Shown here one piece after another: positions 12,132-25,203 of a DNA stretch of 64,000 nucleotides (position 1 is the first letter of the stretch; each line of letters begins with the position of its first letter). The position numbers were made by a program, and so were the translations under genes. The stretch is from Streptomyces sp. NBC_01463. GTDB lineage: Bacteria; Actinomycetota; Actinomycetes; Streptomycetales; Streptomycetaceae. Below the pieces are notes generated by a model. That model saw only the letters and a program-made list of their open reading frames with translations. It made no database searches and was not told the origin of the DNA. The stretch spans positions 6,696,001 through 6,760,000 of the forward strand of contig CP109468.1 of assembly GCA_036227345.1 (NCBI GenBank), read 5' to 3'.

Positions 12132-13592
12132 TCAGGGGGAGATCTCCTCCAGTGGCCGGTTGGCCGTCTCCTCGGCCAGGGTCCCCGCCACCACCGCGCC
12201 GATCACGGCCACCGCGCCGAGCATCACGAACACGGCGACGACGCTGTCGTTCGCCGCGTAGACGACGCCCACCAGGATCGGGCCGAGGATCACGCCGAGG
12301 CGGTTGACCGCGCCACCGACGCTGCAGCCGAGGGCGCGCATCCGGGTCGGGTACAGCTCGGGTGTGTACAGGTAGAGGCAGATGTTGGAGCCGAAGAAGC
12401 CGACCGCGGACAGCGAGGTCCAGATCAGGACCTGTACGGGGGAGTGGGCGCCGAGCGCCGCCAGGGTGAGCAGGAGCGCGGCCGAGGCGCCGAGGCAGAC
12501 GGCGAAGATCCGGCGGCGGCCCAGCACGTCCACGGTGAGGGCGACGAACAGGCAGCCGAGCAGTCCGGCGACCGAGGTCACGGTGGAGTAGAGCAGGGCG
12601 TCGGAGAGGCCGAGGCCGTACTCGTCCTTGTAGATGCTGGGCAGCCAGGACGTCACGCCGTAGTTCACGAAGTAGCCGGTGAACCAGATCGCGCCGACGA
12701 CCAGGGTGCGGCGCCGGTAGCGGCCGGTGAACAGGCCGCGCACACCCGTCGCGGCGCGTTCCGCGGGGGTGGCGGTCCCGGCGGCCGGTGCGGGTGAGGG
12801 GGCGGGCGCGGCCGGGGCGGCCACCGGCGGGGGCAGGGGCTGCCCGGTGGCCGCCGACACCTTCGCCTCGATCCCGCTCATCACCGCGTCGGCCTCCGTG
12901 AGCCGGCCGCGGTCCGCGAGCCAGCGCGGGGACTCCGGCACCCTGCGCTGGACGAGGAAGGCCAGCAGCCCGGGTACGGCGGCGACGGCGAACATCACGC
13001 GCCAGCCCGCCGCCGGGACCACCCAGGCCGCCACCAGGGCGCCGACGGTGAGGCCGGCCGGGAAGACGAGTTCGTACAGCAGGACGAAGCGGCCCCGCTT
13101 GAAGCTCCGGGTGATCTCGCTGATGAAGGCGGCCGCCACCGGCACCTCGCCGCCGATCGCGAGCCCCTGGAGGAAGCGCAGGGCCAGGAACGGGGTGAGC
13201 GAGGTGCAGGCGGTGAGGGCCAGGCTCGCCAGACCGGACGCGGCCACGCAGTACGCGATCACCTTCACCCGGCCGTAGCGGTCGGCGAGCCGTCCCGAGA
13301 GCAGGGCGCCGACGAGCATGCCGGCCGAGCCGACCGTGAGGACCGCGGTGGCGTCACCCGTGGTCAGGTGCCACTCGTCGCGGAGCTCGGGCAGCGCGTA
13401 GGCGATCAGCAGCTGGTCGAACGCCTCGAAGAAGGTGACGACGCCCACGATCAGGCGGACGGTGACGTGCCAGCGCGAGAGCGGCAGGCGCTCGAAGCGG
13501 GCGGCGATGCCGGCGCGGGTGGTGAGGGCGGTTTCGGTGGGGCCGGCCGGCAAGGGATCCGGTTCGGCGCCCTGCGCGGTGTCGGTGCTCAT
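12132..13592 (-). CDS. MFS transporter, aromatic-acid/sugar-porter type
   Basis: A 486-aa secondary transporter with about 12 membrane segments and a Pro/Ala-rich central loop near residues 255-285. The segment FFEAFDQLLIAYALPEL in helix 1, GRLADRYGRVKV between helices 2 and 3, and RFLQGLAIGGEVPVAAAFISE in helix 4 are typical of the AAHS (aromatic acid:H+ symporter) and sugar-porter branches. Gene position decides between them: it diverges from an aromatic-type catabolic operon across a region with two shared operators. The likely job is import of that pathway's substrate by proton symport. Its leader is about 160 nt if the promoter at 13767-13795 is right. Confidence 0.85.
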   Translation of the reverse strand: MSTDTAQGAEPDPLPAGPTETALTTRAGIAARFERLPLSRWHVTVRLIVGVVTFFEAFDQLLIAYALPELRDEWHLTTGDATAVLTVGSAGMLVGALLSGRLADRYGRVKVIAYCVAASGLASLALTACTSLTPFLALRFLQGLAIGGEVPVAAAFISEITRSFKRGRFVLLYELVFPAGLTVGALVAAWVVPAAGWRVMFAVAAVPGLLAFLVQRRVPESPRWLADRGRLTEADAVMSGIEAKVSAATGQPLPPPVAAPAAPAPSPAPAAGTATPAERAATGVRGLFTGRYRRRTLVVGAIWFTGYFVNYGVTSWLPSIYKDEYGLGLSDALLYSTVTSVAGLLGCLFVALTVDVLGRRRIFAVCLGASAALLLTLAALGAHSPVQVLIWTSLSAVGFFGSNICLYLYTPELYPTRMRALGCSVGGAVNRLGVILGPILVGVVYAANDSVVAVFVMLGAVAVIGAVVAGTLAEETANRPLEEISP

Positions 13593-13753
13593 CCAGGGTT
13601 CCTCCTGCTCCGCGTGGGGCCGGAGCGGTTGGGGAGCCAGGTGTACGGGGTCGCAGAGGGGACGGGGATGAGCTGAGCGTACGGGTGGGAACGGCCGCCC
13701 GATGCTCGTGAGCCCGTGAGATCACCCACTGACCTCTGTAAGTGCCTAGCTTT

Positions 13754-13766
13754 TAAGTGCTTAAGT
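13754..13766. promoter_or_regulatory. Operator 1, TAAGTGCTTAAGT, probable MarR site
   Basis: A 13-bp near-palindrome (TTAAGTGCTTAA core, 13753-13764) in an AT-rich patch. It occurs in inverted orientation at 13845-13857. Operator 1 sits at or just past the -10 of the leftward MFS promoter. A third partial copy, TAAGTGCCTAG, begins near 13739. The MarR gene at the end of the cluster is the natural candidate regulator; MarR proteins bind such TTAAG-type dyads. Confidence 0.7.
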
Positions 13767-13795
13767 TTTATCCGGCCGGGACTGGTGGCCGTCAA
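13767..13795 (-). promoter_or_regulatory. Promoter for the MFS transporter gene
   Basis: On the minus strand, TTGACG (13795-13790) and GATAAA (13772-13767) are separated by 17 bases. The -35 matches the vegetative consensus at five of six positions, the -10 at four. Operator 1 immediately follows, so a bound repressor would block initiation. Confidence 0.6.
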
Positions 13796-13832
13796 CCCCT
13801 CCGGAGGCAAAAGGAGATTTTGCCGAGGGGGC

Positions 13833-13861
13833 TTGCGGGGAATTACTTAAGCACTTAGATT
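13833..13861 (+). promoter_or_regulatory. Promoter for the catabolic operon, with operator 2 inside the spacer
   Basis: TTGCGG (13833-13838) and TAGATT (13856-13861) are 17 bases apart. Operator 2, ACTTAAGCACTTA, occupies 13845-13857, filling the spacer between the two boxes. Repressor binding here would exclude RNA polymerase. The start codon of the first gene lies at 13904, giving a leader of about 35 nt with an AGGAGG Shine-Dalgarno. Confidence 0.65.
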
Positions 13862-13903
13862 TTTAGGCCTGAGGTAACCGATTCGATCGCAGGAGGCCAA
13901 CTG

Positions 13904-15385
13904 ATGCTTGCCGACGAGGTGTTGGTCGCGGGGCAGTGGCGGCAGGGCCGTGGCGCCCTCATCGAGACGGTCGACCCGGCCACCGGCCAGGTCATCGCCA
14001 CCGTGCACGCCGCATCCCTCGACGACGTCGAGGAGGCCGCCACCGCAGCCGCCCGCGCCGCCCACGACCCTGCCTGGCGCACCCTCCCCGCTCACCTCCG
14101 CGCCCGGCTGCTCCACCGGATCGCCGACCTCGTCGAGCAGAGCGCCGACCGGCTCTCCGCCCTGCAGACCGCCGACACCGGCAAGTGCCGCACCGAGACC
14201 CGCGCCCTCGTCCTGAGCGCCGCCGGCACCTTCCGCTACACCGCCGCCGCCCTGGAGACCGCCGAGGACGCCCTCACCCCGTCCCGCGGCCCGTACGTCA
14301 CGATGAGCGTCCACGAACCCATCGGCGTCATCGGCGCGATCACCCCCTGGAACTCGCCGATCGCCAGCGACGCCCAGAAGCTCGCCCCCGCCCTCGCCGC
14401 GGGCAACGCCGTCCTCCTCAAGCCCGCCGAATGGACCCCGCTCGTCGCCCTCGCGCTGGGCCGGCTGGTCCACCAGGCCCTCACCGAGGCCGCACTGCCC
14501 ACCGCCCTGCTGTCCGTGCTGCCCGGCCGCGGCAGCGTCATCGGCGACGCGATCGTCCGCCACCCGGCCGTCGGGAAGATCACCTTCACCGGCGGCACCG
14601 CCACCGGCCGCACCCTCGCCCACGTCGCCGCCGACAAGCTCATCCCCGTCTCGCTCGAACTCGGCGGCAAGTCCCCGACGATCGTGCTGGAGGACGCCGA
14701 CCTGGAACAGGCCGTCGCCGGCGTCATGTACGGCGTCTTCTCCTCCACCGGACAGAGCTGCATCGCCGGCTCCCGGCTCTTCGTCGCCCGCTCCCGCTAC
14801 GACGAGTTCCTCGGCGAACTCGTCGCCCGCACCGAGAAACTGCGCGTCGGACCCGGCACCGACCCCGACACCCAGGTCGCCCCCCTCGTCCACCACAAGC
14901 ACCGCGACGGCGTCGCCGCCTACGTCGACCTGGCCCGCGAGGAAGGCGCCACCGTCCGCTGCGGGGGAGCGGCCCCCGAAGGCGAGCGCTACCGCGACGG
15001 CGCCTACTACCTCCCCACCGTCCTGGACGGCCTGCCCCACACCGCCCGCGTCTGCCAGGAGGAGATCTTCGGCCCGGTCCTGGTCGCCCTGCCCTTCGAC
15101 GACGAGGACGACCTCGTCGGCCTGGCCAACGACAGCGTCTACGGACTGGCCTGCGGCATCTGGACCCGCGACCACGCCCGCGCCTGGCGCCTGGCCCGCC
15201 GCATCGACGCGGGCACCGTCTGGATCAACACGTACAAGCAGTTCAGCATCTCCACCCCGTTCGGCGGGCTGAAGGACAGCGGGATCGGTACCGAGAAGGG
15301 CCGCGACCTCGTCCGCGGCTACCAGCGGCAGAAGTCCCTCTACTGGGCCACCGACACCACCCCGCTGCCCTGGGCCGCCCAGTGA
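13904..15385 (+). CDS. Aldehyde dehydrogenase (NAD(P)+), first gene of the catabolic operon
   Basis: A 493-aa enzyme oxidising an aldehyde to an acid. Catalytic residues are in place: E252 in LELGGKSP and C286 in STGQSCIAGSR; the PWNSP motif lies at about 147-151 and the NAD-binding lysine in LLKPAEWTP. It has the usual family length. The closest general types are hydroxymuconic-semialdehyde and betaine/HpaE-like dehydrogenases, but the substrate cannot be assigned. In this operon the likely substrate is a semialdehyde formed after ring cleavage, or an aldehyde released by the ThDP enzyme. The ATG follows AGGAGGCCAACTG. Confidence 0.92.
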   Translation: MLADEVLVAGQWRQGRGALIETVDPATGQVIATVHAASLDDVEEAATAAARAAHDPAWRTLPAHLRARLLHRIADLVEQSADRLSALQTADTGKCRTETRALVLSAAGTFRYTAAALETAEDALTPSRGPYVTMSVHEPIGVIGAITPWNSPIASDAQKLAPALAAGNAVLLKPAEWTPLVALALGRLVHQALTEAALPTALLSVLPGRGSVIGDAIVRHPAVGKITFTGGTATGRTLAHVAADKLIPVSLELGGKSPTIVLEDADLEQAVAGVMYGVFSSTGQSCIAGSRLFVARSRYDEFLGELVARTEKLRVGPGTDPDTQVAPLVHHKHRDGVAAYVDLAREEGATVRCGGAAPEGERYRDGAYYLPTVLDGLPHTARVCQEEIFGPVLVALPFDDEDDLVGLANDSVYGLACGIWTRDHARAWRLARRIDAGTVWINTYKQFSISTPFGGLKDSGIGTEKGRDLVRGYQRQKSLYWATDTTPLPWAAQ

Positions 15386-15414
15386 AGCCGAGCGAGAAGA
15401 AGCCGGAGCCCCCC

Positions 15415-16383
15415 ATGCCGTACGAGAACACCCCACACCCGCTGCCCGAACCCGTCGCCCGGCTGCGCGCCCTGCGCTCCGTCGAGCTCCGCACCCCCGC
15501 CCTCACCGAGTCCGCCGACTTCTACGCCGAGGTCTGGGGCCTGGAACCCGTCGAACGCGAACACGACGCCACCTGGCTGCGCGGCACCGGCGAGGAGCAC
15601 CACGTCCTCCACCTCGCCCGCGGTGAGCAGAACGGCCTCGGCCGCATCACCTTCGCCGTCGCCACCCCCGCCGAGATCGACGAGGCCGCCCGCCGGCTCC
15701 TGGCCCGCTCCATCGTCCCGGTCGCCGGACCCGGACCCCTCGACCAGGTCGGCGGCGGCTACGGACTCCGCTTCACCGACCCCGAGGGCCGGCTGATCGA
15801 ACTCAGCGCCCAGACCCACGCCGTCACCCCGCGCGGCCGGGACGCCGCCGTCCCCGTCGGCGTCACCCACACCGTCCTCAACACCACGGACATCGACGCC
15901 GCCGTCGCCTTCTACACCTCGGTCCTCGGCCTGCGCGTCTCCGACTGGTCCGAACACCAGATGGCGTTCCTGCGCTGCAACGCCGACCACCACTGCATCG
16001 CGTTCAACCAGGCCGAGTGGACCTCCCTCAACCACGTCGCGTACGAGATGACATCCGTCGACCACTTCATGCGCGGCCTAGGCCGCCTCCGCCACCACGG
16101 CATCACCCCCCAGTGGGGGCCCGGCCGGCACGGCCCCGGCAACAACACCTTCTCCTACTTCACCGACCCCGCCGGACTCGTCTGCGAATACACCTCCGAG
16201 GTCGCGCAGATCGTCGAGGACGCCTGGATCGCCAAGGTCTGGCGCCGCACCCCCGACCTCTCCGACCTCTGGGGAACCGCCGGACCGCCCTCGCCCGGAA
16301 TCCGCCGCCACATGGCCGGAACACCCGACCCCGGCCCCCTCACCACCACCCCCACCGACGCACCGGAAGAGGTGACCGCATGA
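15415..16383 (+). CDS. VOC-superfamily extradiol dioxygenase
   Basis: A 322-aa two-module VOC protein with the layout of type I extradiol ring-cleavage dioxygenases such as BphC. The iron ligands can be read at matching positions: H152 in VGVTHTVLN, H207 in LNHVAYE and E258 in LVCEYTSE. The N-terminal module (about 18-140) lacks metal ligands, as in the family. It should open the ring of a catechol next to its hydroxyls using Fe(II) and O2. The start was chosen at ATG 15415 because it lies just after the aldehyde dehydrogenase stop and begins the homologous sequence. Its stop overlaps the next start (ATGA). Confidence 0.88.
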   Translation: MPYENTPHPLPEPVARLRALRSVELRTPALTESADFYAEVWGLEPVEREHDATWLRGTGEEHHVLHLARGEQNGLGRITFAVATPAEIDEAARRLLARSIVPVAGPGPLDQVGGGYGLRFTDPEGRLIELSAQTHAVTPRGRDAAVPVGVTHTVLNTTDIDAAVAFYTSVLGLRVSDWSEHQMAFLRCNADHHCIAFNQAEWTSLNHVAYEMTSVDHFMRGLGRLRHHGITPQWGPGRHGPGNNTFSYFTDPAGLVCEYTSEVAQIVEDAWIAKVWRRTPDLSDLWGTAGPPSPGIRRHMAGTPDPGPLTTTPTDAPEEVTA

Positions 16384-17219
16384 CCGCCACCCTCACCCCC
16401 CGGCCGGACGCCTCCGCCCGCCCCGCCCGCCCCGTGCGCCGTATCGGCCTCGTCGGCTGGGGAGCCATCGGACGCGTCGTCGGCACCGCACTGGCCGAAG
16501 GACACATCCCCGGCGCCGAACTCACCTGCATCATCGACAACCGGCCCCTCGTCGACGCCCCCGCACCCCAGCTGTCCTTCGAGGACGCCCTCACCGTCTG
16601 CGACCTCATCGTCGAAGCAGCGGGCCAGGCCGTCGTACGGGAATGGGCCGAACGCGTCCTGAACAGCGGCGCCGACCTGCTGATCGCCTCCACCGGCGCT
16701 CTCGTCGACCCCGAACTCACCGGCCGGCTGCGCGCCGCCGGACCCGGACGCGTCTACTTCACCGGCGGAGCCGTCGGCGGACTCGACCTCCTCCAGGCCG
16801 TCCGCGGACTCGGCCCCCTCACCTCCGTCACCCTCACCACCACCAAGCTTCCCGCCACCCTCCACCAGCCGTGGATGGACGCGGAACTGACCGAGCGGCT
16901 GCGGACCGCCGCCGGACCCGTCGAGGTGATGCGCGGCACCGCACGCGACGTACCCGTCAAGTTCCCCAAGTCGACCAACGTCGCCGCGTCCGTCGCCCTC
17001 GCCACCGGCGACCCCGCACTCGTCGAGGTCGTCGTCGTCGCCGACCCGGCCGCCACCCTCACCCGGCACGTCATCGAGGCGGCCGGACCGCACGGCAGCT
17101 ACCGCTTCGAGGTCGCCCACCGGCCCGACGAAGCCAACCCCGCCACCAGCCAGGTCGTCCCGCACGCCGTGCTCCGCAGCCTCGGCGCCGTCGTCGGCCG
17201 GGCAGGACAGATCCTGTGA
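16380..17219 (+). CDS. Aspartate-dehydrogenase-like oxidoreductase
   Basis: A 279-aa NAD(P)-dependent enzyme related to L-aspartate dehydrogenase (NadX). The Rossmann motif GLVGWGAIGRVVG is at about 23-35. Family markers include IASTGALVDPEL, GGAVGGLDLLQAV, VKFPKSTNVAAS and NPATSQVVP. True NadX makes iminoaspartate from aspartate for NAD synthesis, or oxaloacetate and ammonia. Here it overlaps dioxygenase and hydrolase genes and no nad genes are near, so it more likely acts on a pathway intermediate, for example by reductive amination or dehydrogenation. That is inference. It is translationally coupled on both sides by ATGA and GTGA overlaps. Confidence 0.85.
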   Translation: MTATLTPRPDASARPARPVRRIGLVGWGAIGRVVGTALAEGHIPGAELTCIIDNRPLVDAPAPQLSFEDALTVCDLIVEAAGQAVVREWAERVLNSGADLLIASTGALVDPELTGRLRAAGPGRVYFTGGAVGGLDLLQAVRGLGPLTSVTLTTTKLPATLHQPWMDAELTERLRTAAGPVEVMRGTARDVPVKFPKSTNVAASVALATGDPALVEVVVVADPAATLTRHVIEAAGPHGSYRFEVAHRPDEANPATSQVVPHAVLRSLGAVVGRAGQIL

Positions 17220-18013
17220 CCGCCGCCACCGTTGCCGGGGTGCACACGCGGGAGGCCGGCGACCCCGCCGCCCCGCTGCTCCTCTGCCTGCACGGCATCG
17301 GCTCCTCGTCCGCCGCCTTCGCCCCTCAACTGGACCAACTCGCCGACCAGGTAAGGGTCGTGGCCTGGGACGCCCCGGGCTACGCGGACTCCGCCGACCC
17401 CGGCCACGCCCCCGGCCTCGACGGCTACGCCGACACCGCGGCCGCCCTCATCCGCGCCCACGGCGGCCCCGCCCACGTCCTCGGCGTCTCCTGGGGCGGC
17501 GTCATCGCGCTGCGCCTCGCCACCCGCCACCCGGACCTCGTCGCCTCGCTCGTCGTCGCCGACTCCAGCCGGGGCTCCGGGACCGACCCGGACAGGGCGA
17601 CGGCCATGCGCGGACGCGCCGAACAGCTGGCCGCCCAGGGCCCCGAGGCGTTCGCCGCCGCCCGCGGACCACGCCTCGTCTCCGCCGCCGCACCCCCCGC
17701 GCTCGTCGCACGCGTCGTCGCCACCATGGCCTCCTCCGTCCGCAGCCCCGGCTACGGATACGCCGCCGCGTCCATGGCCGAGGCCGACCTCACCGACGAC
17801 CTGCCCGCCATCACCGCACCGGCCCTCGTGCTGTGCGGCGAACAGGACACCGTCACCGGAACCGACGAGTCACAGGCCATCGCCGGCGGACTCACCAAGT
17901 CCGTCTACGTCACCCTCTCCGGCGCCGGACACCTCGCCAACCAGGAACGCCCCGAGGCCTTCAACGCCTGGGTCCGCGCCCACCTCCACGTCGTCGCCCG
18001 CGTCCCCGCGTAA
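17216..18013 (+). CDS. Alpha/beta-hydrolase, possible C-C bond hydrolase
   Basis: A 265-aa hydrolase starting at a GTG that overlaps the previous stop. The oxyanion-hole region LLLCLHGIGSSS is followed by nucleophile S92 in GVSWGG, acid D211 in CGEQDTV and base H239 in SGAGHLANQE. Length and motifs suit meta-cleavage-product hydrolases (BphD/MhpC) and also haloperoxidase-like or lactone hydrolases. Its place after an extradiol dioxygenase gene favours hydrolysis of a ring-cleavage product, with the exact substrate open. Confidence 0.85.
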   Translation: MTAATVAGVHTREAGDPAAPLLLCLHGIGSSSAAFAPQLDQLADQVRVVAWDAPGYADSADPGHAPGLDGYADTAAALIRAHGGPAHVLGVSWGGVIALRLATRHPDLVASLVVADSSRGSGTDPDRATAMRGRAEQLAAQGPEAFAAARGPRLVSAAAPPALVARVVATMASSVRSPGYGYAAASMAEADLTDDLPAITAPALVLCGEQDTVTGTDESQAIAGGLTKSVYVTLSGAGHLANQERPEAFNAWVRAHLHVVARVPA

Positions 18014-18055
18014 CGACGCCACCCCCAACCCCCACCACCGAACCGAGGAGCACCC

Positions 18056-18577
18056 GTGCCCATCGACAACACCCCGTACGAGACCGACGGCGACCTCGCG
18101 AAGTTCACCGACTCCCTCATCGCCACCAAGGACTCCCGCGAACCCGACTGGAACACCCTCTCCTTCCAGGAGAAGGCCGGCGCCCAGTACCGGCGCGCCC
18201 AGATCCGCTACGTCGGCTCCGGCGCCACCGGCAACCACGAGAACGACAACCGCATCCTCCCGTCCGGCGGCTTCACCCTCTCCAACATGCTGCTCCCGCC
18301 GGGCGCCGAAGGCCCCGAGCACACCCACCACGACGTCGAGGAGGCCTTCTTCGTCCTGGAGGGCCAGGTCAGGGTCGGCATCCACCGCGGCTCCGACGAG
18401 GCCGAATACCGCACCCTCGGCTACCGCGACATGATCGTCGTCCCCGCCGGAGTGGCCCGTTCGCTGAAGAACGAGGGCGACACCGACGCCCTGTTCTGCG
18501 TCATCATCGGCACCCGGAAGCCGCAGGTCCCCACCTACCCCGAGCACTCCCCGATGCACGGCATCACCCGCGACTGA
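18056..18577 (+). CDS. Cupin-domain protein
   Basis: A 173-aa single cupin. The metal-binding motif 1 is seen as PEHTHHDVEEAFFVLEGQVRVG-like sequence from about residue 88 (H89, H91, E96 region), and motif 2 as YRDMIVVPAGVARSLKN. Such proteins can be dioxygenases, isomerases or small-molecule sensors; which one cannot be read here. It starts at GTG after GAGGAGCACCC, 42 bp past the hydrolase, and its stop overlaps the next start (TGATG). By context it takes part in the same pathway. Confidence 0.85.
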   Translation: MPIDNTPYETDGDLAKFTDSLIATKDSREPDWNTLSFQEKAGAQYRRAQIRYVGSGATGNHENDNRILPSGGFTLSNMLLPPGAEGPEHTHHDVEEAFFVLEGQVRVGIHRGSDEAEYRTLGYRDMIVVPAGVARSLKNEGDTDALFCVIIGTRKPQVPTYPEHSPMHGITRD

Positions 18578-19335
18578 TGGCCGCCGACGACACCCCCCGT
18601 ACGGTCGTCGTCACCGGCGCCGGCCGCGGCCTGGGACTGGCCGCGGCCCGCCGGATCGGCAACGACGGCCACCGCGTCGTCATCGCCGAACTCGACGCGA
18701 CGACCGGCACGCAGGCCGCCGAGGAACTGCGCGCCGAGGGCATCACCGCCGACTTCCACCCGCTCGACGTCGCCGACCCGGCCTCCACCGCCGCACTGGC
18801 CGCCACCCTCGCCGAGGACGGCAGCAGGCTGTACGGACTGGTCAACAACGCCGGCCTCGCCAACGCGGTGGGCGGCAAACCGTTCCACGAGATCGACGTC
18901 GAGGCCTGGGACCGCATCATGACGGTCAACGCCCGCGGCCCCTGGCTCGTCGCCCGCGCCCTCCTCCCGCTCATGCGGGACCACGGCAGCGGACGCATCG
19001 TCAACCTCGCCTCGGACGCCGCCCTGTACGGATCGCCCCGGCTCGCCCACTACATCGCCTCCAAGGGCGCCGTGATCTCCCTGACCCGGGCCATGGCACG
19101 CGAGACCGGCGACTTCGGCATCACCGTCAACGCCGTCGCCCCCGGCCTCACGGAGGGGGAGTCCGCCGTGGACATCCCCGCAGAACGCCACGAGCTGTAC
19201 CGCCTGAACCGGGCGATCTCCCGCCCGCAGCAACCCGCCGACCTGGTCGGCCTGATCGCCTTCCTCATCGGCGACGAATCCGGCTACATCACGGGCCAGA
19301 CCTTCGCGGTCAACGGCGGCTTCACGATGCAGTGA
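18577..19335 (+). CDS. Short-chain dehydrogenase/reductase, canonical
   Basis: A 252-aa NAD(P)-dependent SDR. The cofactor motif TGAGRGLG lies at about 14-21, NNAG at about 88-91, and the catalytic residues S146, Y159 and K163 are all present (YIASK). The aspartate-type residue after beta-2 (AELDATTG) suggests NAD rather than NADP. Role in the cluster might be rearomatisation of a cis-diol or oxidation of an alcohol intermediate. Its stop is followed by a repeat-rich gap of 168 bp before the second SDR, the largest gap in the operon. Confidence 0.9.
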   Translation: MAADDTPRTVVVTGAGRGLGLAAARRIGNDGHRVVIAELDATTGTQAAEELRAEGITADFHPLDVADPASTAALAATLAEDGSRLYGLVNNAGLANAVGGKPFHEIDVEAWDRIMTVNARGPWLVARALLPLMRDHGSGRIVNLASDAALYGSPRLAHYIASKGAVISLTRAMARETGDFGITVNAVAPGLTEGESAVDIPAERHELYRLNRAISRPQQPADLVGLIAFLIGDESGYITGQTFAVNGGFTMQ

Positions 19336-19338
19336 GAA

Positions 19339-19426
19339 ACGAAACCGGTCCGGCACACATCCAAGCCGGTCCGGCGCAACCTCCAAGCCGGTCCGGCACA
19401 ACCTTCAAGCCCGTCCGGCGATTGAG
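19339..19426. repeat. Four degenerate 22-bp tandem units ending in a dispersed repeat
   Basis: Units begin at 19339, 19361, 19383 and 19405, exactly 22 bp apart, each with an AAGCCGGTCCGGC-like core. The last unit is the dispersed repeat TCAAGCCCGTCCGGCGATTG, also found at 24365 and 24418. It is followed by a palindrome around 19434-19455 (CACCGGGGTTCCGGTG). The array splits the catabolic operon between the two SDR genes. Confidence 0.85.
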
Positions 19427-19503
19427 GACACCCCCGCACCGGGGTTCCGGTGCCCCGCGGAGCCCCCGCACCCGCACCCCGCCCCCAACCCGCAAGGAAC
19501 CCC

Positions 19504-20289
19504 ATGGACCTCCGCCTGAAAGGCCACCGCATCCTCGTCACCGGCGGCAGCTCCGGCGTCGGCCTCGCCACCATCCGCATGCTGCTGGAAGAGGGCGCCC
19601 ACGTCGCCACCTGCGGCCGCCGCGCCGACGCCCTCGCCCGGGCCCTCGACGGCCTCGCCGGCCCGGACGTGCTCTACCACGCCCCCTGCGACGTCCGCGA
19701 CGAAGCCGCCGTACAGGCCTTCACCGAGGCCGCCGCCGACCACCTCGGCGGGCTGGACGGCCTCGTCAACAACGCCGGCGCCTCCCGGATGAAACCCTTC
19801 GCCGAGACCACCGCCGACGACTGGCGCGACGAACTGGAACTCAAGTTCTTCGGCGTCCTCAACCCCCTCAACGCCGCCCTGCCCCACCTCCGCGCCGCCG
19901 GCCACGCCTCCGTCGTCAACATCAACGCCGTCCTCGCCAAACAGCCCGAGACGGCGCTGATGACCACCAGCGCCGCCCGCGCCGGCATCCTCAACCTCTC
20001 CACCTCCCTGTCCAAGGAACTCGCCCCCGACGGCATCCGCGTCAACTCCGTCTGCCTCGGCCTCATCGACACCGGACAGTGGGAACGCCGCTACGCCGCC
20101 TCCGGCAGCCCACTCGACTACACCGCCTGGCAGACCGGCCTCGCCGCCGACCGAGGCATCGCGCTCGGCCGCCTCGGCAACGCCGGCGAAGTCGCGTACG
20201 CCGTCACCGCCCTCCTCTCACCCAGGGCCTCGTACATCACCGGCACCACCGTCGACGTCTGCGGCGGCGTCAACCGCGCCATCGCGTAA
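19504..20289 (+). CDS. SDR-fold protein lacking the catalytic tetrad
   Basis: A 261-aa protein with an intact Rossmann entry (TGGSSGVG at about 14-21) and NNAG (about 88-91), so it should still bind a dinucleotide. At the four positions of the SDR tetrad it has K114, A142, T155 and R159 in place of Asn, Ser, Tyr and Lys. The frame is clean and the rest of the fold is conserved, including CGGV near the C-terminus, so this is not a decayed gene. It may use another mechanism or be a structural partner. The ATG at 19504 follows GCAAGGAACCCC. Function unknown. Confidence 0.85.
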   Translation: MDLRLKGHRILVTGGSSGVGLATIRMLLEEGAHVATCGRRADALARALDGLAGPDVLYHAPCDVRDEAAVQAFTEAAADHLGGLDGLVNNAGASRMKPFAETTADDWRDELELKFFGVLNPLNAALPHLRAAGHASVVNINAVLAKQPETALMTTSAARAGILNLSTSLSKELAPDGIRVNSVCLGLIDTGQWERRYAASGSPLDYTAWQTGLAADRGIALGRLGNAGEVAYAVTALLSPRASYITGTTVDVCGGVNRAIA

Positions 20290-20321
20290 CCCCCCGTCCC
20301 AGAGACCCAGGAGCACCCGAC

Positions 20322-21992
20322 ATGACCCCACCCAACGGCGGCGACCTGCTCGTCGAGACGCTGCGCGGACTCGGCGTCGACACGGTGTTCGGCATCGTCA
20401 GCGTGCACAACCTGCCGCTCGTCGAAGCCGTCGACCGCGACCTGCGCTTCGTGCCCGTCCGCCACGAAGCCGCCGCGGTCAACGCCGCCGACGGCTACGC
20501 CCGCGCCACCGGCAGCCTCGGCTGCGCCCTCACCAGCACCGGCACGGGAGCGGGCAACGCCGCGGGCTCCCTCATCGAGTCCCTCAGCTCCGGCACCCCC
20601 GTCCTGCACATCACCGGACAGATCGACAGCGAACACCTCGGCTCCGGACGCGGCTTCATCCACGAGACCAAGGACCAGCTCGGCATGCTCCGCGCGGTCT
20701 CCACCCACGCCGTCACCGTCACCGACGCCGTGGACGCGGGCGACATCCTCCGCGACGCGGCGGCCCGCGCCCTCACCGCACCGCACGGCCCGGTCAGCGT
20801 CGAATGGCCCATCGACCTGCAGTTCGCCCCCCAGCAGCTCACCGGCACCCCCGTGCCGAAGCCGGCCGTCCCCGCCCTGCCCGACCCGGCACTCCTCGAC
20901 GAAGCGGCCGCCCTGCTGTCCGCCGCCCGCCGCCCCCTCGTCTGGGCCGGCGGCGGAGCCAACAGCGCCCGCCCCGAACTCGCCGCGCTCCTCGACGCAC
21001 TGAACGCCGGACTCGTCACCTCCAACTCCGGCCGCGGCTCCGTCCCCGAATCCGACGACCGCGTCCTCGGCAACTACGCCACCGCACCCGCCGGCCGCGC
21101 CCTGCTCGCCGAGGCCGACGTCCTGCTCTCCATCGGCACCCACTTCCGCTCCAACGAGACCGCCGACTACAGCCTCGGACTCCCGCCCGTCCACATCCAG
21201 CTGGACCTGGACCCGGCAGCCCCCGGCCGCGTGTACCCCGCCACCTGCGCCCTCCACGGCGACGCCGCCACCGTCCTCGCCGCACTCCTGGGACGCGTCA
21301 CCAGCGGCGGTACGGAGACGAGCTGGCCGGACCGCGTACGCAGGGCCCGCACCGACGCCCGCACCGCACAGCGCCACGCCATCGGACCCCAGGCCGCCGT
21401 CAACGACGCGATCCGCGACGCCTGCCCGCCCGGCTCCGTCATCGCCCGCGACGTCACCATCCCCTCCTCCACCTGGGGAAACCGGCTCCTGGAGATCACC
21501 GACCCGGCCACCAACGTGTTCCCCCGCGGCGGCGGCATCGGACAGGGCCTCGCCATGGGCATCGGCGCCGCACTCGGCCGCCCCTCCACCCCCACCGTCG
21601 TCATCGCGGGCGACGGCGGCCTCGCCGTCCACCTCGGCGAACTCCTCACCCTCGCCCAGGAGAAGCCCGACCTCACGCTCCTCGTCTTCAACGACGGCGG
21701 CTACGGCGTCCTGCGCAACATGCAGGACAACCACTTCCCCCGCCGCTCCGGAGTCGACCTCACCACCCCCGACTTCGCCCTCCTCGCCGCCGCCGTCGGC
21801 CTCCCGTACGCCCGGATCGCCGCCGAAGCCGACGCCGGACCCGTCATCAGGGCCGCCACCGCGTCCCCCGGCCCCACCCTCGTCGAGATCGACCTCGCCG
21901 CGCTCGGCCCGATGAACACCCCGTTCACCCCGCCGGTCAAGCTCCCCGCGACCGCCACCGATACCTCAGGAGAAGGAGGCAACCCGTCATGA
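20322..21992 (+). CDS. Thiamine-diphosphate-dependent enzyme, acetolactate-synthase-like
   Basis: A 556-aa three-domain ThDP enzyme. The N-terminal Pyr domain carries the activating glutamate E49 (VRHEAAAVNAADGYAR). The middle domain follows at about 190-320. The C-terminal PP domain has the metal/ThDP signature GDGG at 430 through N457 (FNDGGYG). Relatives include acetolactate synthase, benzoylformate decarboxylase and 2-hydroxyacyl lyases. No regulatory subunit is nearby and ilvB is normally elsewhere, so decarboxylation or carboligation of a 2-oxo acid in the pathway is more likely. It has a CAGGAG Shine-Dalgarno, and its stop overlaps the reductase start. Confidence 0.88.
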   Translation: MTPPNGGDLLVETLRGLGVDTVFGIVSVHNLPLVEAVDRDLRFVPVRHEAAAVNAADGYARATGSLGCALTSTGTGAGNAAGSLIESLSSGTPVLHITGQIDSEHLGSGRGFIHETKDQLGMLRAVSTHAVTVTDAVDAGDILRDAAARALTAPHGPVSVEWPIDLQFAPQQLTGTPVPKPAVPALPDPALLDEAAALLSAARRPLVWAGGGANSARPELAALLDALNAGLVTSNSGRGSVPESDDRVLGNYATAPAGRALLAEADVLLSIGTHFRSNETADYSLGLPPVHIQLDLDPAAPGRVYPATCALHGDAATVLAALLGRVTSGGTETSWPDRVRRARTDARTAQRHAIGPQAAVNDAIRDACPPGSVIARDVTIPSSTWGNRLLEITDPATNVFPRGGGIGQGLAMGIGAALGRPSTPTVVIAGDGGLAVHLGELLTLAQEKPDLTLLVFNDGGYGVLRNMQDNHFPRRSGVDLTTPDFALLAAAVGLPYARIAAEADAGPVIRAATASPGPTLVEIDLAALGPMNTPFTPPVKLPATATDTSGEGGNPS

Positions 21993-22951
21993 CGCCCGCC
22001 GAGGAACCCCGGCTCGACCTGCTCGTCCACCGCATGACCTGGGAGGCCGACGGAGTCCTGAGCATCGAACTCGTCCACCCCGCGGGCGACCCGCTCCCCG
22101 CCTGGCGGCCCGGCGCCCACATCGACGTGCACACCGGCGGACACATCCGCCAGTACTCCCTGTGCTCCGACCCCGACGACACCACCCGCTGGCGCATCGG
22201 CATCCTCCGCGAACCCGCCTCCCGCGGCGGCTCCGCCCACGTCCACACCCAGCTCCGCCCCGGCCAGACCCTCCATGTCCAGGGTCCCCGCAACCACTTC
22301 GAGCTCGACCCGGCGGGCGACGCCACCGGTTACCTCTTCATCGCCGGCGGCATCGGCATCACCCCGCTCCTCGCCATGGCCCGCGAGGCCGCCCGCACCG
22401 GCACCCCGTGGCGCCTCGTCCACGGCGGCCGCACCCGCACCTCCCTGGCCTTCGGCGCCGAACTCACCGCACTGGCCGGACTCCCGGGCGGCACAGTCGA
22501 ATTCGTCCCGCAGGACGAACACGGCCACCTCGACCTCGACACCCTCCTCGGCGACCTCGCCCCCGGCACCCAGGTCTACTGCTGCGGACCCGAACCCCTC
22601 CTCGCCGCCGTCGAGGAACGCCACCCCGGCGCCCGCACCGAACGCTTCGCCGCACCCGCCGCCGCACCCCGCGACGGCGCGGACAGCGCCTTCGACCTCG
22701 TCTGCTCCCGCACCGGACGCACCGTCGAGGTCGCTCCCGGCACCTCCGCACTCGACGCACTGGAGAGCGCGGGCATCCCCGTCGCCTCCTCCTGCCGCGA
22801 CGGCATCTGCGGCACCTGCGAGACCAAGGTCCTCGAAGGCACCCCCGACCACCGCGACTTCCTGCTCACCGACACCGAACGCGAAGCCGGCGCCTCGATG
22901 ATGCTCTGCGTCTCCCGCGCCCGGACCCCCCGCCTCGTACTCGACCTCTGA
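21989..22951 (+). CDS. Oxygenase reductase, PDR/VanB type (FMN, NAD(P)H, [2Fe-2S])
   Basis: A 320-aa electron-transfer protein with three domains in the phthalate-dioxygenase-reductase order: flavin-binding barrel (RQYSLCSDP at about 51-59), NAD-binding domain (FIAGGIGITPLLAMA) and C-terminal plant-type ferredoxin. The cluster-binding cysteines are C269, C274, C277 and C307. It should pass electrons from NAD(P)H to the Rieske oxygenase encoded two genes later. The domain order matches VanB, the partner of vanillate demethylase. It overlaps the ThDP gene by ATGA and has a strong AGGAG leader. Confidence 0.93.
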   Translation: MTPAEEPRLDLLVHRMTWEADGVLSIELVHPAGDPLPAWRPGAHIDVHTGGHIRQYSLCSDPDDTTRWRIGILREPASRGGSAHVHTQLRPGQTLHVQGPRNHFELDPAGDATGYLFIAGGIGITPLLAMAREAARTGTPWRLVHGGRTRTSLAFGAELTALAGLPGGTVEFVPQDEHGHLDLDTLLGDLAPGTQVYCCGPEPLLAAVEERHPGARTERFAAPAAAPRDGADSAFDLVCSRTGRTVEVAPGTSALDALESAGIPVASSCRDGICGTCETKVLEGTPDHRDFLLTDTEREAGASMMLCVSRARTPRLVLDL

Positions 22952-22988
22952 ACCCCTCCGAACGAACCCCTACCGAAGGGATGCGGAC

Positions 22989-23219
22989 ATGACCACCCCG
23001 ACCACCCCGCAGTACCTCGACCCGAACCAGGCACGCACCACCGAGCCCACCCCGTACGAGAAGAAGCTCGCCGCGGTGATCGAAGAGGTCTTCGGCAGCG
23101 GAGCCCACGACCTGCCCGGCCTCGTCGCCGGACTCAACGCCCGCGACCTGCCCGCACCCGACGGCACCCCGTGGACCGAGGAAACCTTCCGCAACGAGAT
23201 GCGACGACTGGGAGCGTGA
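22989..23219 (+). CDS. Small HTH-like protein between reductase and oxygenase genes
   Basis: A 76-aa acidic protein. Residues about 22-76 form three predicted helices, including a DLPGLVAGLNARDLPAPDG turn and a WTEETFRNEMRRLGA end. This resembles the helix-turn-helix part of serine recombinases, but there is no catalytic domain. It sits 37 bp after the reductase and only 7 bp before the oxygenase gene, so it is part of the same unit. It may be an accessory subunit of the oxygenase system or a small regulator. I do not know a proven function. Confidence 0.75.
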   Translation: MTTPTTPQYLDPNQARTTEPTPYEKKLAAVIEEVFGSGAHDLPGLVAGLNARDLPAPDGTPWTEETFRNEMRRLGA

Positions 23220-23226
23220 GCCGATC

Positions 23227-24294
23227 ATGACCACCGACACCACCACCGCGGACCCGGGCACCCCCACCCGCCCCTCCGAGGTCGCCCGCCCCGGCCGGCG
23301 CACCGCCGACAAGCTCTTCGCCACCGGCATCCGCAACCAGTGGTACGCCGTCTGCCCCTCCGGCTTCGTCCCCGCGGGCGGCATGAAGCGCCTCACCCTC
23401 CTCGGCGAGGAATGGGTCCTCTTCCGCCGTGCCGACGGCACCCTCCACATGCTGGAGGACCGCTGCCCCCACCGCGGCGCCCGCCTCTCCCTCGGCAAGC
23501 ACCTCGGCGACCGCATCGCCTGCTGGTACCACGGCGTCCAGGTCGACGGCACCGGCACCGTCGCCGCCGTCCCCGGCCTGCCCGGCTGCAACCTCGAAGG
23601 CAAGCAGCTCGTCGCCGCCCCGCACGTCATCGAGACCGGCGGCGGCATCCTCGCCTACTTCGGCGACGAGGAGCACCCCGAACCGGCACCGCTCGTACTT
23701 CCCGAACCCCTCACCGACCCCGGCACCTCCGCGTTCCTCTGCTACGCCGAGTGGAACGTCAACTGGCGCTACGCGGTGGAGAACCTCCTCGACCCCATGC
23801 ACGGATCGTTTCTCCACCGCGACTCGCACAGCATGGCCGAGGGCCAGACCACCGCACGCTTCCGCATCCGGGAGACCGAGCGCGGCTTCTTCTTCGAGAA
23901 GACCGACCAGACCGGCGTCAACTTCGACTGGGTCGAACTCTGCCGCACCGGCGTCGACTGGGTCGACCTCACCATCCCGTACCCGCCGACCGCCGGCCCC
24001 GGCGGACCCTTCGGCATCGTCGGCATGGCCACGCCCATCGACGAGAACCGCTGCGCCGTCTTCTTCTGGCGCTACCGCAAGGTCACGGACTGGCAGCGCG
24101 ACACCTGGCGCTTCCTCTACAAGACGCTCCTGGAGGACCGCCACTGGGAGGTCCTCGAACAGGACCGCATCATGCTGGAGGACCTGCGCACGGACGCCGA
24201 CCAGGCGGAGAACCTCTACCAGCACGACCTGGGCGTGGTCCGCGTCCGCCGCATGTACCGCACGGAGGCGGAAGCACAGGCAACGAAGGCCTGA
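23227..24294 (+). CDS. Rieske non-heme iron oxygenase, large subunit
   Basis: A 355-aa terminal oxygenase. The Rieske [2Fe-2S] ligands are C80, H82, C99 and H102 (CPHRG and CWYHG, 16 residues apart). The mononuclear iron site is D189-x2-H192-x4-H197 (LLDPMHGSFLHRDSH), with D313 or D319 as the third ligand. No small subunit gene is present, as in the one-component VanA-type oxygenases that demethylate or hydroxylate aromatic acids or quaternary amines. Together with the VanB-type reductase it should start the pathway by hydroxylating or O-/N-demethylating the substrate. It is the last gene of the operon. Confidence 0.93.
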   Translation: MTTDTTTADPGTPTRPSEVARPGRRTADKLFATGIRNQWYAVCPSGFVPAGGMKRLTLLGEEWVLFRRADGTLHMLEDRCPHRGARLSLGKHLGDRIACWYHGVQVDGTGTVAAVPGLPGCNLEGKQLVAAPHVIETGGGILAYFGDEEHPEPAPLVLPEPLTDPGTSAFLCYAEWNVNWRYAVENLLDPMHGSFLHRDSHSMAEGQTTARFRIRETERGFFFEKTDQTGVNFDWVELCRTGVDWVDLTIPYPPTAGPGGPFGIVGMATPIDENRCAVFFWRYRKVTDWQRDTWRFLYKTLLEDRHWEVLEQDRIMLEDLRTDADQAENLYQHDLGVVRVRRMYRTEAEAQATKA

Positions 24295-24301
24295 CCGCCT
24301 C

Positions 24302-24475
24302 GGGTCCTCAATCGCCGGCAGCACAGCCCGCCACCGGCACGCTCAAGCCGGACACCGGCAAAAATCAAGCCCGTCCGGCGATTGAGGACACGTGCACCCG
24401 GGGCAACAGTGCCCAAATCAAGCCCGTCCGGCGATTGAGGACACCCCCCGCACCGGGGCCCCGGTGCCCCCGCGG
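24302..24475. repeat. Dispersed repeat cluster at the operon end
   Basis: Two perfect 30-bp copies, 24362-24391 and 24415-24444, share the core TCAAGCCCGTCCGGCGATTG with the copy at 19405. A partial unit starts 22 bp before the first at 24343, and an inverted piece, GTCCTCAATCGCCGGC, is at 24304-24319. A palindrome around 24450-24467 (GCACCGGGGCCCCGGTGC) ends the block. The region lies between the convergent Rieske and MarR genes and probably also serves as terminator. Confidence 0.85.
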
Positions 24476-24508
24476 AGCGCCCCCGCCAAGCCCGCCCCCG
24501 CCAAACCG

Positions 24509-25075
24509 CTACGCCCCCGACTCCGCAGCCAGCACAGACCGCTCAAGCTTCTCCAGCAACCCCGCCAACTGCCCGCACTCCGCCGCGGTCAGCCCCGCCA
24601 GCATCCGCCGCTCGTTGTCCAGATGCTCCGAGAACAGTTCGTCGATCACCGACAGCCCCTCGTCCGTCAGCCGCGAGTGCACCACCCGGCGGTCCTCCGG
24701 ATCCCGCTCCCGCCGGATCAGCCCGTCCTTCTCCAGACGGTCGATCCGCAACGTGACCCCCGCCGAGCTGATCAGCCCGGAATCGGCCAGCTCACCCGCC
24801 GTACGCCGGAACGGCGCCCCCGCCCTGCGCAGCGCCGTCAGCACATCGAACCCGGCCATCGACAGCCCCTTGCGCTCCACCGGCCGCGAGATCGCCGCGC
24901 TGTACCGCAGGAACGCCCGGTGCAGCCGGCCGAACACCTCCAGCGGAGCCGTGTCCAGCTCGGGCCGCTCCCGCCGCCAGTCCGCCACGATCGACGCCAC
25001 CGCGTCCTCCCGCGGCGCGGACCCGGCCGGCCCCGCAGATGCCGCGGACCCCGCGGACGCCTGGTTCTTCGCCAT
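24509..25075 (-). CDS. MarR-family transcriptional regulator
   Basis: A 188-aa winged-helix regulator. The core (about 50-150) reads LSMAGFDVLTALRRAGAPFRRTAGELAD, then SAGVTLRIDRLEKDGLIRRERDPEDRRVVHSRLTDEG, the diagnostic wing. The frame is open to a TTG at 25111, but the ATG at 25075 is preferred because GGAGGA precedes it by nine bases. It is read toward the catabolic operon and is the only regulator gene in the cluster, so it is the best candidate to bind the operators at 13754 and 13845 and release on binding an aromatic ligand. A possible autoregulatory dyad lies at 25108-25120. Confidence 0.9.
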   Translation of the reverse strand: MAKNQASAGSAASAGPAGSAPREDAVASIVADWRRERPELDTAPLEVFGRLHRAFLRYSAAISRPVERKGLSMAGFDVLTALRRAGAPFRRTAGELADSGLISSAGVTLRIDRLEKDGLIRRERDPEDRRVVHSRLTDEGLSVIDELFSEHLDNERRMLAGLTAAECGQLAGLLEKLERSVLAAESGA

Positions 25076-25120: not shown

Positions 25121-25203
25121 CCCTCAAAGGACGACGTCGGCCCCCGTCAGCCCAGCGAGAACCCGCCTGCACACCGCACCCCGCATACGGCAGCATGGCC
25201 CCC

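What the first reader, a model, noticed from the sequence alone, without database searches (positions are those of the whole stretch)
12132..25075. Uncharacterised 13-gene catabolic cluster: Rieske oxygenase, extradiol dioxygenase, ThDP enzyme and AspDH-like protein together
Eleven close-packed rightward genes, six of them linked by start/stop overlaps, lie between a divergent MFS transporter and a convergent MarR regulator. The order is ALDH, extradiol VOC, AspDH-like, C-C-type hydrolase, cupin, SDR, SDR, ThDP enzyme, VanB-type reductase, small HTH protein, Rieske oxygenase. It has the front end of an aromatic degradation route (uptake, hydroxylation or demethylation, ring opening, hydrolysis, aldehyde oxidation), but lacks the isomerase, decarboxylase, hydratase and aldolase of the homoprotocatechuate, catechol or gallate pathways. 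A ThDP enzyme and an aspartate-dehydrogenase-like protein are unusual in such a set and suggest a nitrogen-bearing or 2-oxo-acid intermediate.
Basis: partly seen in the sequence, partly recalled or inferred. Interest (0 to 1): 0.78.

Follow-up and report, generated by a model that had tools for sequence, protein, structure and literature searches.

The report
Conserved aromatic-ring breakdown gene cluster
A Streptomyces gene cluster that is shared, in varied gene order, with many unrelated soil, marine and clinical bacteria encodes a complete-looking aerobic route for breaking an aromatic ring, probably one that contains nitrogen, and its enzyme set fits the old, gene-less bacterial pathway for kynurenic acid.

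Summary
In detail: 11 rightward genes (13904-24294) lie between a divergent MFS and a convergent MarR gene. The set is not unique: the Rieske ortholog is in 34 of 246 genomes of this genus and 15 of 398 Pseudomonadota. 16 of 17 Streptomyces contexts keep the gene order; of 12 Pseudomonadota regions six hold all nine core enzymes and four lack only the short cupin. A palindrome TAAGYRCTTA lies twice between MFS and ALDH, with one further exact site in the genome. So it is a co-inherited, probably regulated catabolic module. Catalytic residues are intact except in SDR2. Best model (0.5): Rieske and SDR1 make a catechol, VOC cleaves it, ThDP and ALDH shorten a 2-oxo-acid side chain, a hydrolase opens a remaining pyridone, and AspDH saves its nitrogen as L-aspartate. 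This fits kynurenate degradation (steps partly recalled) and balances by formula. Against: no tryptophan dioxygenase or kynureninase gene lies nearby, SDR2 or cupin is absent from some modules, and substrate evidence is lacking.

The parts
12132..13592 (-). MFS transporter, nearest to the aromatic acid/H+ symporter subfamily (TIGR00895, 229 bits, below its 418.6 cut-off); proposed uptake of the aromatic acid
   Evidence: 40% identical to the module MFS of Caballeronia NK8
13739..13857 (.). divergent regulatory region with palindromic operator-like sites TAAGTGCCTA (13739-13748), TAAGTGCTTA (13754-13763), TAAGCACTTA (13848-13857); proposed MarR operator
   Evidence: 3 matches (up to 1 mismatch) in 64 kb vs 0.26 expected; relaxed palindrome before ALDH in 15 of 16 other Streptomyces loci; 2 of the 3 exact sites in the genome (reversed-pattern control: 1)
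13904..15385 (+). aldehyde dehydrogenase (Cys286, Glu252 conserved); proposed oxidation of the aldehyde made by the ThDP enzyme
   Evidence: 61% to Caballeronia ortholog
15382..16383 (+). VOC two-domain extradiol-type dioxygenase (His163, His218, Glu269, Tyr259); proposed ring cleavage
   Evidence: (3b59, 211 bits)
16380..17219 (+). L-aspartate-dehydrogenase-like protein (His230 conserved); proposed reduction of iminosuccinate to L-aspartate
17216..18013 (+). alpha/beta hydrolase (Ser92, Asp211, His239); proposed C-C/pyridone hydrolysis
18056..18577 (+). monocupin with HxHxxxEE metal-type site; role unknown, perhaps a second hydrolytic or tautomerising step; not in every module
18577..19335 (+). 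SDR1, canonical Ser-Tyr-Lys; proposed cis-dihydrodiol dehydrogenase
19406..19429 (+). copy of a dispersed intergenic repeat inside the operon (also 24366-24389 and 24419-24442); 42 copies in the genome with up to 1 mismatch
19504..20289 (+). SDR2 (PRK07062 family), Tyr and Lys of the active site replaced; proposed NAD(P)H-dependent C=C reduction of the side chain
20322..21992 (+). ThDP-dependent enzyme (PRK07064 family, Glu49 conserved); proposed 2-oxo-acid decarboxylase
21989..22951 (+). VanB-type NAD(P)H oxidoreductase with C-terminal 2Fe-2S domain; proposed electron supply to the Rieske oxygenase
22989..23219 (+). 76-aa HTH_62 (PF20552) protein, directly before the Rieske gene; function unknown
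23227..24294 (+). Rieske non-haem iron oxygenase (Cys80/His82/Cys99/His102; Asp189/His192/His197); proposed ring dihydroxylation
24509..25075 (-). MarR-type regulator, proposed repressor

Best explanation
A regulated, co-inherited catabolic operon for a quinoline-2-carboxylate, most likely kynurenate (4-hydroxyquinoline-2-carboxylate). SHOWN here: gene content, order, conservation, active-site residues, operator-like palindromes. INFERRED: every reaction. Proposed route: MFS imports the acid; the Rieske oxygenase with its VanB-type reductase dihydroxylates the benzene ring; SDR1 rearomatises it to 7,8-dihydroxykynurenate; the VOC enzyme cleaves it (8,8a) to a 4,6-dihydroxypicolinate with a 3-carboxy-3-oxopropenyl side chain; SDR2 reduces the side-chain C=C; the ThDP enzyme decarboxylates the 2-oxo acid to an aldehyde; ALDH oxidises this to the 2-carboxyethyl compound; the hydrolase (perhaps with the cupin) opens the pyridone by two hydrolyses to glutarate and iminosuccinate (aminofumarate); AspDH reduces iminosuccinate to L-aspartate. 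MarR, bound at the palindromes, controls both promoters. General frame (dioxygenation, extradiol cleavage, 2-oxo-acid shortening, nitrogen recovery by AspDH): about 0.75; kynurenate or a close quinoline-2-carboxylate as substrate: about 0.5.
For: Module conservation: best-matching relatives of all parts but VanB and MarR in Caballeronia NK8 (ALDH 61%, Rieske 53%, cupin 46%, SDR1 46%, SDR2 44%, ThDP 43%, HTH_62 43%, MFS 40%, hydrolase 35%, AspDH 32%, VOC 28%). Annotated sets. 16 of 17 Streptomyces contexts keep the full order. Strict recount (each gene at its own place, 100 bits or more): six of 12 Pseudomonadota regions hold all nine core enzymes, four lack only the short cupin, one lacks cupin and ALDH, one is cut by a contig end; of 80 AspDH-selected loci (mostly Burkholderiaceae, so biased) 65 hold all nine. 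Catalytic residues present. Held papers name the catechol and the reduced 2-oxo acid (PMC11364965) and the one-carbon-shorter acid, the last as a tryptophan-pathway metabolite (PMC12388018); going from one to the next takes a decarboxylation and an oxidation, as ThDP + ALDH would give. The formyl intermediate and the order are recalled from KEGG. The eight steps balance by formula. Other clusters pair an AspDH of the same family with kynureninase and/or 3-hydroxyanthranilate dioxygenase. In several lineages the module neighbours a flavin monooxygenase whose best solved relative is 6-hydroxynicotinate 3-monooxygenase (278 bits), and in two loci a second one nearest to the pyridine-ring-opening MHPCO (105 bits).
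Against: No tryptophan dioxygenase (TDO), kynureninase, KynB-type cyclase or 3-HAA dioxygenase hit near the module loci tested; kynurenine aminotransferase was not tested. A P. aeruginosa kynU mutant accumulates kynurenate to 100 uM (PMC4938989, passages), although a P. aeruginosa protein (3lf1, Q9HYA2; organism recalled) belongs to the SDR2 family. SDR2 is missing from four otherwise complete loci (L078, L079, L084, L086) and the short cupin from six contexts (L007 and five of the 12 fetched Pseudomonadota regions that are not cut by a contig end), so neither is indispensable. The window's AspDH reaches no NCBIfam aspartate dehydrogenase cut-off and its VOC no catechol-dioxygenase cut-off. 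The roles of cupin, HTH_62 and SDR2 are guessed. No substrate evidence exists. AspDH relatives also sit in clusters without any obvious aromatic-ring enzyme.
Confidence: 0.5

Rival explanations
1. Same chemistry frame but another nitrogen-bearing aromatic acid (indole- or pyridine-carboxylate, aminobenzoate, another quinoline) is the substrate; AspDH still captures the amino group.
For: AspDH is a steady part of the module (but the 80 loci were chosen by AspDH); related AspDHs beside 3-HAA dioxygenase and kynureninase; pyridine-type flavin monooxygenases beside some modules.
Against: None of these substrates that I could think of needs SDR1, ThDP and ALDH as simply as the kynurenate scheme (inference).
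Confidence: 0.25
2. Nitrogen-free aromatic: mandelate/benzoylformate- or vanillate-type route (ThDP = aroylformate decarboxylase, ALDH = benzaldehyde/vanillin dehydrogenase, VanAB-type demethylase, then extradiol cleavage), AspDH doing something unrelated.
For: VanA_C domain and VanB-type domain make-up; similarity of ThDP to benzoylformate decarboxylase, far under that family's cut-off (158 vs 493 bits).
Against: No VanA or VanB NCBIfam match; the reductase is replaced by ferredoxin + FAD reductase in several relatives while the SDR beside the Rieske gene stays; ThDP scores 684 vs cut-off 495 in its own family PRK07064; no protocatechuate or meta-pathway lower genes in the cluster.
Confidence: 0.15
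3. Flavonoid-type ring-A pathway like fde of Herbaspirillum.
For: The related isoflavone cluster contains an FdeC-like glyoxalase/extradiol protein, a hydrolase and two cupins (PMC11069340 passages).
Against: fde starts with a flavin 8-hydroxylase, FdeE (PMC11303751 passages), not a Rieske/SDR pair; a ThDP enzyme and AspDH are not mentioned in the passages seen; the operon contents could not be checked fully.
Confidence: 0.07

Closest known systems
Bacterial kynurenate degradation (dioxygenase, dihydrodiol dehydrogenase, 8,8a-dioxygenase; worked out in Pseudomonas extracts around 1961-63; recalled, the primary paper looked up is not held)
   Same: Enzyme classes and order of chemistry; three of its compounds are named.
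   Different: No genes linked to it in anything I found; terminal steps to aspartate and glutarate are my proposal.
Lumichrome/riboflavin catabolic operon lum of Nocardioides (PMC12746152: outline, abstract and passages)
   Same: Rieske dioxygenase, extradiol dioxygenase, a thiamin-dependent decarboxylase and a hydrolase in one actinobacterial catabolic operon for an N-heteroaromatic.
   Different: lum has a P450, a xanthine-oxidase type enzyme, amidases, a two-protein ThDP enzyme and alpha+beta Rieske subunits; the paper's text holds no 'aspartate dehydrogenase' (0 occurrences).
Alphaproteobacterial clusters with AspDH and 3-hydroxyanthranilate dioxygenase, two of them with kynureninase (L094, L097, L098, L099)
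   Same: Same AspDH family beside enzymes of amino-aromatic ring metabolism.
   Different: No Rieske/VOC/ThDP set; a DHDPS-like lyase instead.
A. baumannii A1S_0956-0958 (AspDH, 'betaine-aldehyde dehydrogenase', 'acetolactate synthase'), listed at 2.2-2.4 in a mucin expression table (PMC5757984, passages)
   Same: By the annotations, the same three genes as in the A. baumannii module L003.
   Different: Function not tested in the passages seen; sequence identity to L003 not checked.

Membership tests
Rieske non-haem iron oxygenase | CxH...CxxH cluster ligands and D-xx-H-xxxx-H iron site | tested here: met
   iron site in 24 of 24, cluster ligands in at least 90%; Pfam PF00355 74.6 bits
VanA (vanillate O-demethylase) | curated VanA model match and demethylase context without a diol dehydrogenase | tested here: not met
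   Pfam VanA_C only (43 bits); no NCBIfam VanA match; SDR1 beside the Rieske gene in the 24 contexts aligned
Type I (VOC) extradiol dioxygenase | two VOC domains with His-His-Glu site and active-site Tyr | tested here: met
   H163, H218, E269, Y259 in 24 of 24
Catechol 2,3-dioxygenase / HpaD / BphC equivalogs | score over the curated cut-off | tested here: not met
   108.9 vs 320.2; 99.8 vs 321.4; 81.9 vs 366.5 bits
L-aspartate dehydrogenase (NadX/PRK13303) | Asp_DH_C domain and conserved catalytic-type His | tested here: met
   PF01958 76.3 bits over 27; H230 in 24 of 24, its column aligned with a His of 2dc1 and 1h2h; that this His is catalytic is recalled
L-aspartate dehydrogenase (NadX/PRK13303) | NCBIfam cut-off | tested here: not met
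   best 134.7 vs 206.6 bits
PRK07064 ThDP family | score over the curated cut-off; ThDP-activating Glu | tested here: met
   684.3 vs 495 bits; E49 in 24 of 24
Classical SDR (for SDR2) | Tyr-x-x-x-Lys active site | tested here: not met
   absent in 23 of 23 rows, of which 20 are orthologs; Arg at the Lys position
Kynurenate degradation pathway | enzyme classes for dioxygenation, dihydrodiol oxidation, extradiol cleavage, side-chain reduction, decarboxylation, aldehyde oxidation | tested here: inconclusive
   all classes present in the window and the formulas balance, but the step list is partly recalled and SDR2 is absent from four relatives
Kynurenate degradation pathway | genomic link to kynurenine-forming genes | tested here: not met
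Kynurenate degradation pathway | turnover of kynurenate | not testable with these tools
   needs growth or enzyme assay

The most novel reading that the evidence does not exclude
These are the long-missing genes of bacterial kynurenate degradation (recalled orphan activities EC 1.14.99.2, 1.3.1.18, 1.13.11.10) together with unsuspected end steps: a Tyr/Lys-less SDR as side-chain reductase, ThDP + ALDH shortening, hydrolytic opening of a dihydroxypicolinate, and AspDH returning the tryptophan-derived ring nitrogen as L-aspartate with glutarate as co-product, spread across Streptomyces, Burkholderia, Klebsiella, Acinetobacter and roseobacters.
Probability: 0.42. Interest if true: 0.78.

Novelty: new variant of a known kind. 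Interest (0 to 1): 0.6.

Why it matters
Kynurenate is a neuro- and immunoactive tryptophan product. A widespread module that destroys it, found also in Klebsiella and Acinetobacter, would give genes to enzymes known (by recall) only as activities and let kynurenate removal be read from genomes. Even if the substrate is another N-aromatic acid, the pairing of extradiol cleavage with a ThDP decarboxylase and an aspartate dehydrogenase is a recurrent, unexplained route whose substrate can be tested directly.

Tried and rejected
Vanillate/mandelate reading: considered first, weakened by SDR1, by reductase replacement and by family assignment. Flavonoid fde: I recalled it as containing AspDH; the passages seen did not bear that out, and one paper held none of the terms. 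Lumichrome: abstract and passages looked at, different. Co-localisation with TDO/kynU/KynB/HAO: negative; family-level co-occurrence weak. Promoter/terminator scan uninformative (no sigma-70-like site vs 0.4 expected, one terminator-like site vs 3.6 expected). Cupin structure model (mean pLDDT 68) gave only generic cupin matches. The haloarchaeal locus L096 has AspDH (35-39%) and VOC (24-28%) relatives but a distant ThDP (23-24%) and an alpha/beta-type oxygenase, so it is at most an analogue. P. aeruginosa locus tags gave no paper; that the cluster exists there is recalled, supported only by 3lf1. Protein searches list only the best 120 each, close relatives. My first count of complete loci (70 of 80) let one SDR query match the other SDR; the stricter recount gives 65 of 80, and the distant cupins seen (30-35%) drop out of it.

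Full report
1. Observation. The gene calls of the finding are right. Eleven + strand genes from 13904 to 24294 are packed with 5 overlapping junctions of 10. They face a divergent MFS gene and a convergent MarR gene. Two proteins pass curated cut-offs of families whose names tell no function: ThDP (PRK07064, 684 vs 495 bits) and SDR2 (PRK07062, 336 vs 266). The genome is a Streptomyces-like chromosome (the named best relatives are nearly all Streptomyces).

2. It is a widespread module. The plasmid collection gave annotated relatives with the same set in Caballeronia, Acinetobacter baumannii, Novosphingobium, Klebsiella, Pseudosulfitobacter and, without Rieske and SDR1 genes in view, Vibrio. 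All window proteins except VanB and MarR have relatives in the Caballeronia NK8 module, the two SDRs each with its own partner. By whole-genome search the Rieske ortholog is in 34 of 246 genomes of the window's genus, own included, 2 of 296 of the phylum, own included and both of this genus, 15 of 398 of the Pseudomonadota, the centre G296, chosen for having it, included, and 27 of 250 genomes of one betaproteobacterial family, its centre G299 included. I fetched regions for 16 of the 33 other genus members and 12 of the 15 Pseudomonadota positives. With the S. chartreusis locus, 16 of 17 Streptomyces contexts keep the order MFS / ALDH-VOC-AspDH-hydrolase-cupin-SDR1-SDR2-ThDP-VanB-HTH_62-Rieske; G313 keeps only the Rieske end. 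In a strict recount (own place for each gene, at least 100 bits) six of the 12 Pseudomonadota regions (G702, G815, G732, G915, G864, G791) hold all nine core enzymes; G869, G744, G774 and G875 lack only the short cupin and carry a cupin that is only 30-35% similar instead; G595 lacks cupin and ALDH; G540 is cut by a contig end. Of 80 loci found with AspDH (capped at 80 and mostly Burkholderiaceae), 65 hold all nine; of the other 15, four (L078, L079, L084, L086) lack only SDR2, two (L051, L056) only Rieske, and nine lack three or more, eight of them stored on less than 14 kb. The MarR gene lies on either side of the operon in Streptomyces; IclR genes accompany the proteobacterial sets.

3. Regulation. 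The 311-base space between MFS and ALDH holds TAAGTGCCTA, TAAGTGCTTA and TAAGCACTTA. In the window only these three match TAAGYRCTTA with up to one mismatch (0.26 expected). The whole 9.07-Mb genome has three exact sites, two of them here (the reversed pattern has one). The relaxed palindrome TAAGNNCTTA (one mismatch allowed) occurs in the 450 bases before the ALDH match in 15 of 16 other Streptomyces loci; G382 is the exception and G313, without ALDH, was not counted. A MarR operator is the natural reading; binding is not shown.

4. Active sites. On alignments of 23-25 sequences (columns) the VOC has His163, His218, Glu269, Tyr259 in 24 of 24; the Rieske protein Asp189, His192, His197 in 24 of 24 and the cluster ligands in at least 90%; SDR1 Ser146, Tyr159, Lys163 in 24 of 24; hydrolase Ser92, Asp211, His239 in 24 of 24; ThDP Glu49 in 24 of 24; AspDH His230 in 24 of 24; ALDH Cys286, Glu252 in 23 of 23; cupin His89, His91, Glu95, Glu96 in 25 of 25, the distant cupins included. 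SDR2 is odd: the Tyr-x-x-x-Lys motif is absent in 23 of 23 rows (20 orthologs and three other SDRs), with Arg at the Lys position. Its best solved relative, 3lf1 (Q9HYA2), is a P. aeruginosa protein by recall. The Rieske protein's best solved relatives include carbazole 1,9a-dioxygenase (72.5 bits); the VOC's is 3b59, a structure without a specific function in its name.

5. Why nitrogen, and why kynurenate. L-aspartate dehydrogenase interconverts aspartate and iminosuccinate (recalled). Outside this module, relatives of the module AspDH sit beside 3-hydroxyanthranilate dioxygenase and, in two cases, kynureninase, where ring cleavage could also leave an aminofumarate unit (inference); other relatives sit in different settings. 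A Rieske + SDR + extradiol + hydrolase front end usually leads to hydratase and aldolase; here a ThDP enzyme and an ALDH stand instead, a pair that can turn R-CO-COOH into R-COOH. Kynurenate degradation, as recalled from KEGG map00380 and the 1960s papers (one looked up and not held; Horibata 1961 seen only as a reference), runs: 7,8-dioxygenation, dihydrodiol dehydrogenation, 8,8a cleavage, reduction of the propenyl side chain, decarboxylation, oxidation to 5-(2'-carboxyethyl)-4,6-dihydroxypicolinate. The catechol and the reduced oxo acid are named in PMC11364965 and the carboxyethyl compound in PMC12388018, passages only; the formyl compound was not found. Two further hydrolyses give exactly C4H5NO4 (iminosuccinate) and C5H8O4 (glutarate), and AspDH gives aspartate. 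This gives a task to nine of the eleven operon products; the cupin and the HTH_62 protein are left over. Beside modules of several lineages (G744, G774, G875, G869, G915, L085, Vibrio L008, Pandoraea L067-L070 and L072, these last cut by the locus end) lies a flavin monooxygenase, 53-83% identical to that of G744, whose best solved relative is 6-hydroxynicotinate 3-monooxygenase; G744 and G774 add one nearest to the pyridine-opening MHPCO. Neither passes a NCBIfam cut-off and both belong to a broad family, so this is a hint of pyridine chemistry, not proof.

6. Against. No TDO, kynureninase, KynB-type cyclase or 3-HAA dioxygenase was found near the module (single query sequences, most regions 20-40 kb); aminotransferases were not tested. 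Co-occurrence with TDO in one family is weak: 23 of 27 vs 140 of 223, one-sided p 0.014 without correction, and the four exceptions are the smallest module-positive genomes; among the 19 with printed TDO coordinates only one has both on one contig, 1.3 Mb apart. A P. aeruginosa kynU mutant accumulates kynurenate (PMC4938989 passages). SDR2 and the short cupin are each missing from some modules. The window AspDH and VOC are the parts least like those of Caballeronia (32% and 28%), which may mean a different substrate in Streptomyces. The scheme rests in part on recall.

7. Novelty. Ten literature searches found no gene-level description, but the library lacks most subscription journals. The kind of system, an aerobic ring-cleavage operon, is known; the combination is a new variant.

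Noticed in passing
window 19406-19429, 24366-24389, 24419-24442: Exact copies of a 24-base repeat (CAAGCCCGTCCGGCGATTGAGGAC) that occurs 42 times in the genome with up to one mismatch; one copy sits inside the operon between SDR1 and SDR2.
   Followed up: yes
window 22989-23219; L002, L004, L090, L092, L100 (and L007, apart from its Rieske gene): HTH_62 (PF20552, 'recombinase-like HTH') protein directly before the Rieske gene in Streptomyces and several Proteobacteria; it may be an oxygenase accessory rather than a regulator.
   Followed up: partly
L094, L097, L098, L099: Separate clusters with AspDH, 3-hydroxyanthranilate dioxygenase and a DHDPS-like lyase, three of them with an NAD-dependent succinate-semialdehyde dehydrogenase and two with kynureninase: a possible second AspDH-dependent tryptophan ring-cleavage route.
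   Followed up: partly
L164:11406-12590, L164:17000-18166, L161, L156, L008: Flavin monooxygenases like 6-hydroxynicotinate 3-monooxygenase, and in two loci MHPCO-like, beside the module.
   Followed up: partly
L092 6669-28795: Caballeronia NK8 carries a second full module on pNK84, and 21 kb further on the same ferredoxin and HTH_62 proteins start again.
   Followed up: no
L078, L084, L086: Otherwise complete modules in which no SDR2 ortholog was found in 20 kb, but another SDR without the Tyr-Lys motif is present.
   Followed up: no
L096 1163-12321: Haloarchaeal plasmid cluster with AspDH, VOC, a distant ThDP enzyme, an hcaB-like SDR and alpha/beta-type ring-hydroxylating subunits; the alpha ORF matches only the catalytic domain, not a Rieske domain.
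   Followed up: partly
window 11777-12112, 25156-27735, 28012-29451: Stand-alone chorismate mutase type II (PF01817) just left of the cluster; right of it an M1 aminopeptidase and a PLP decarboxylase.
   Followed up: no
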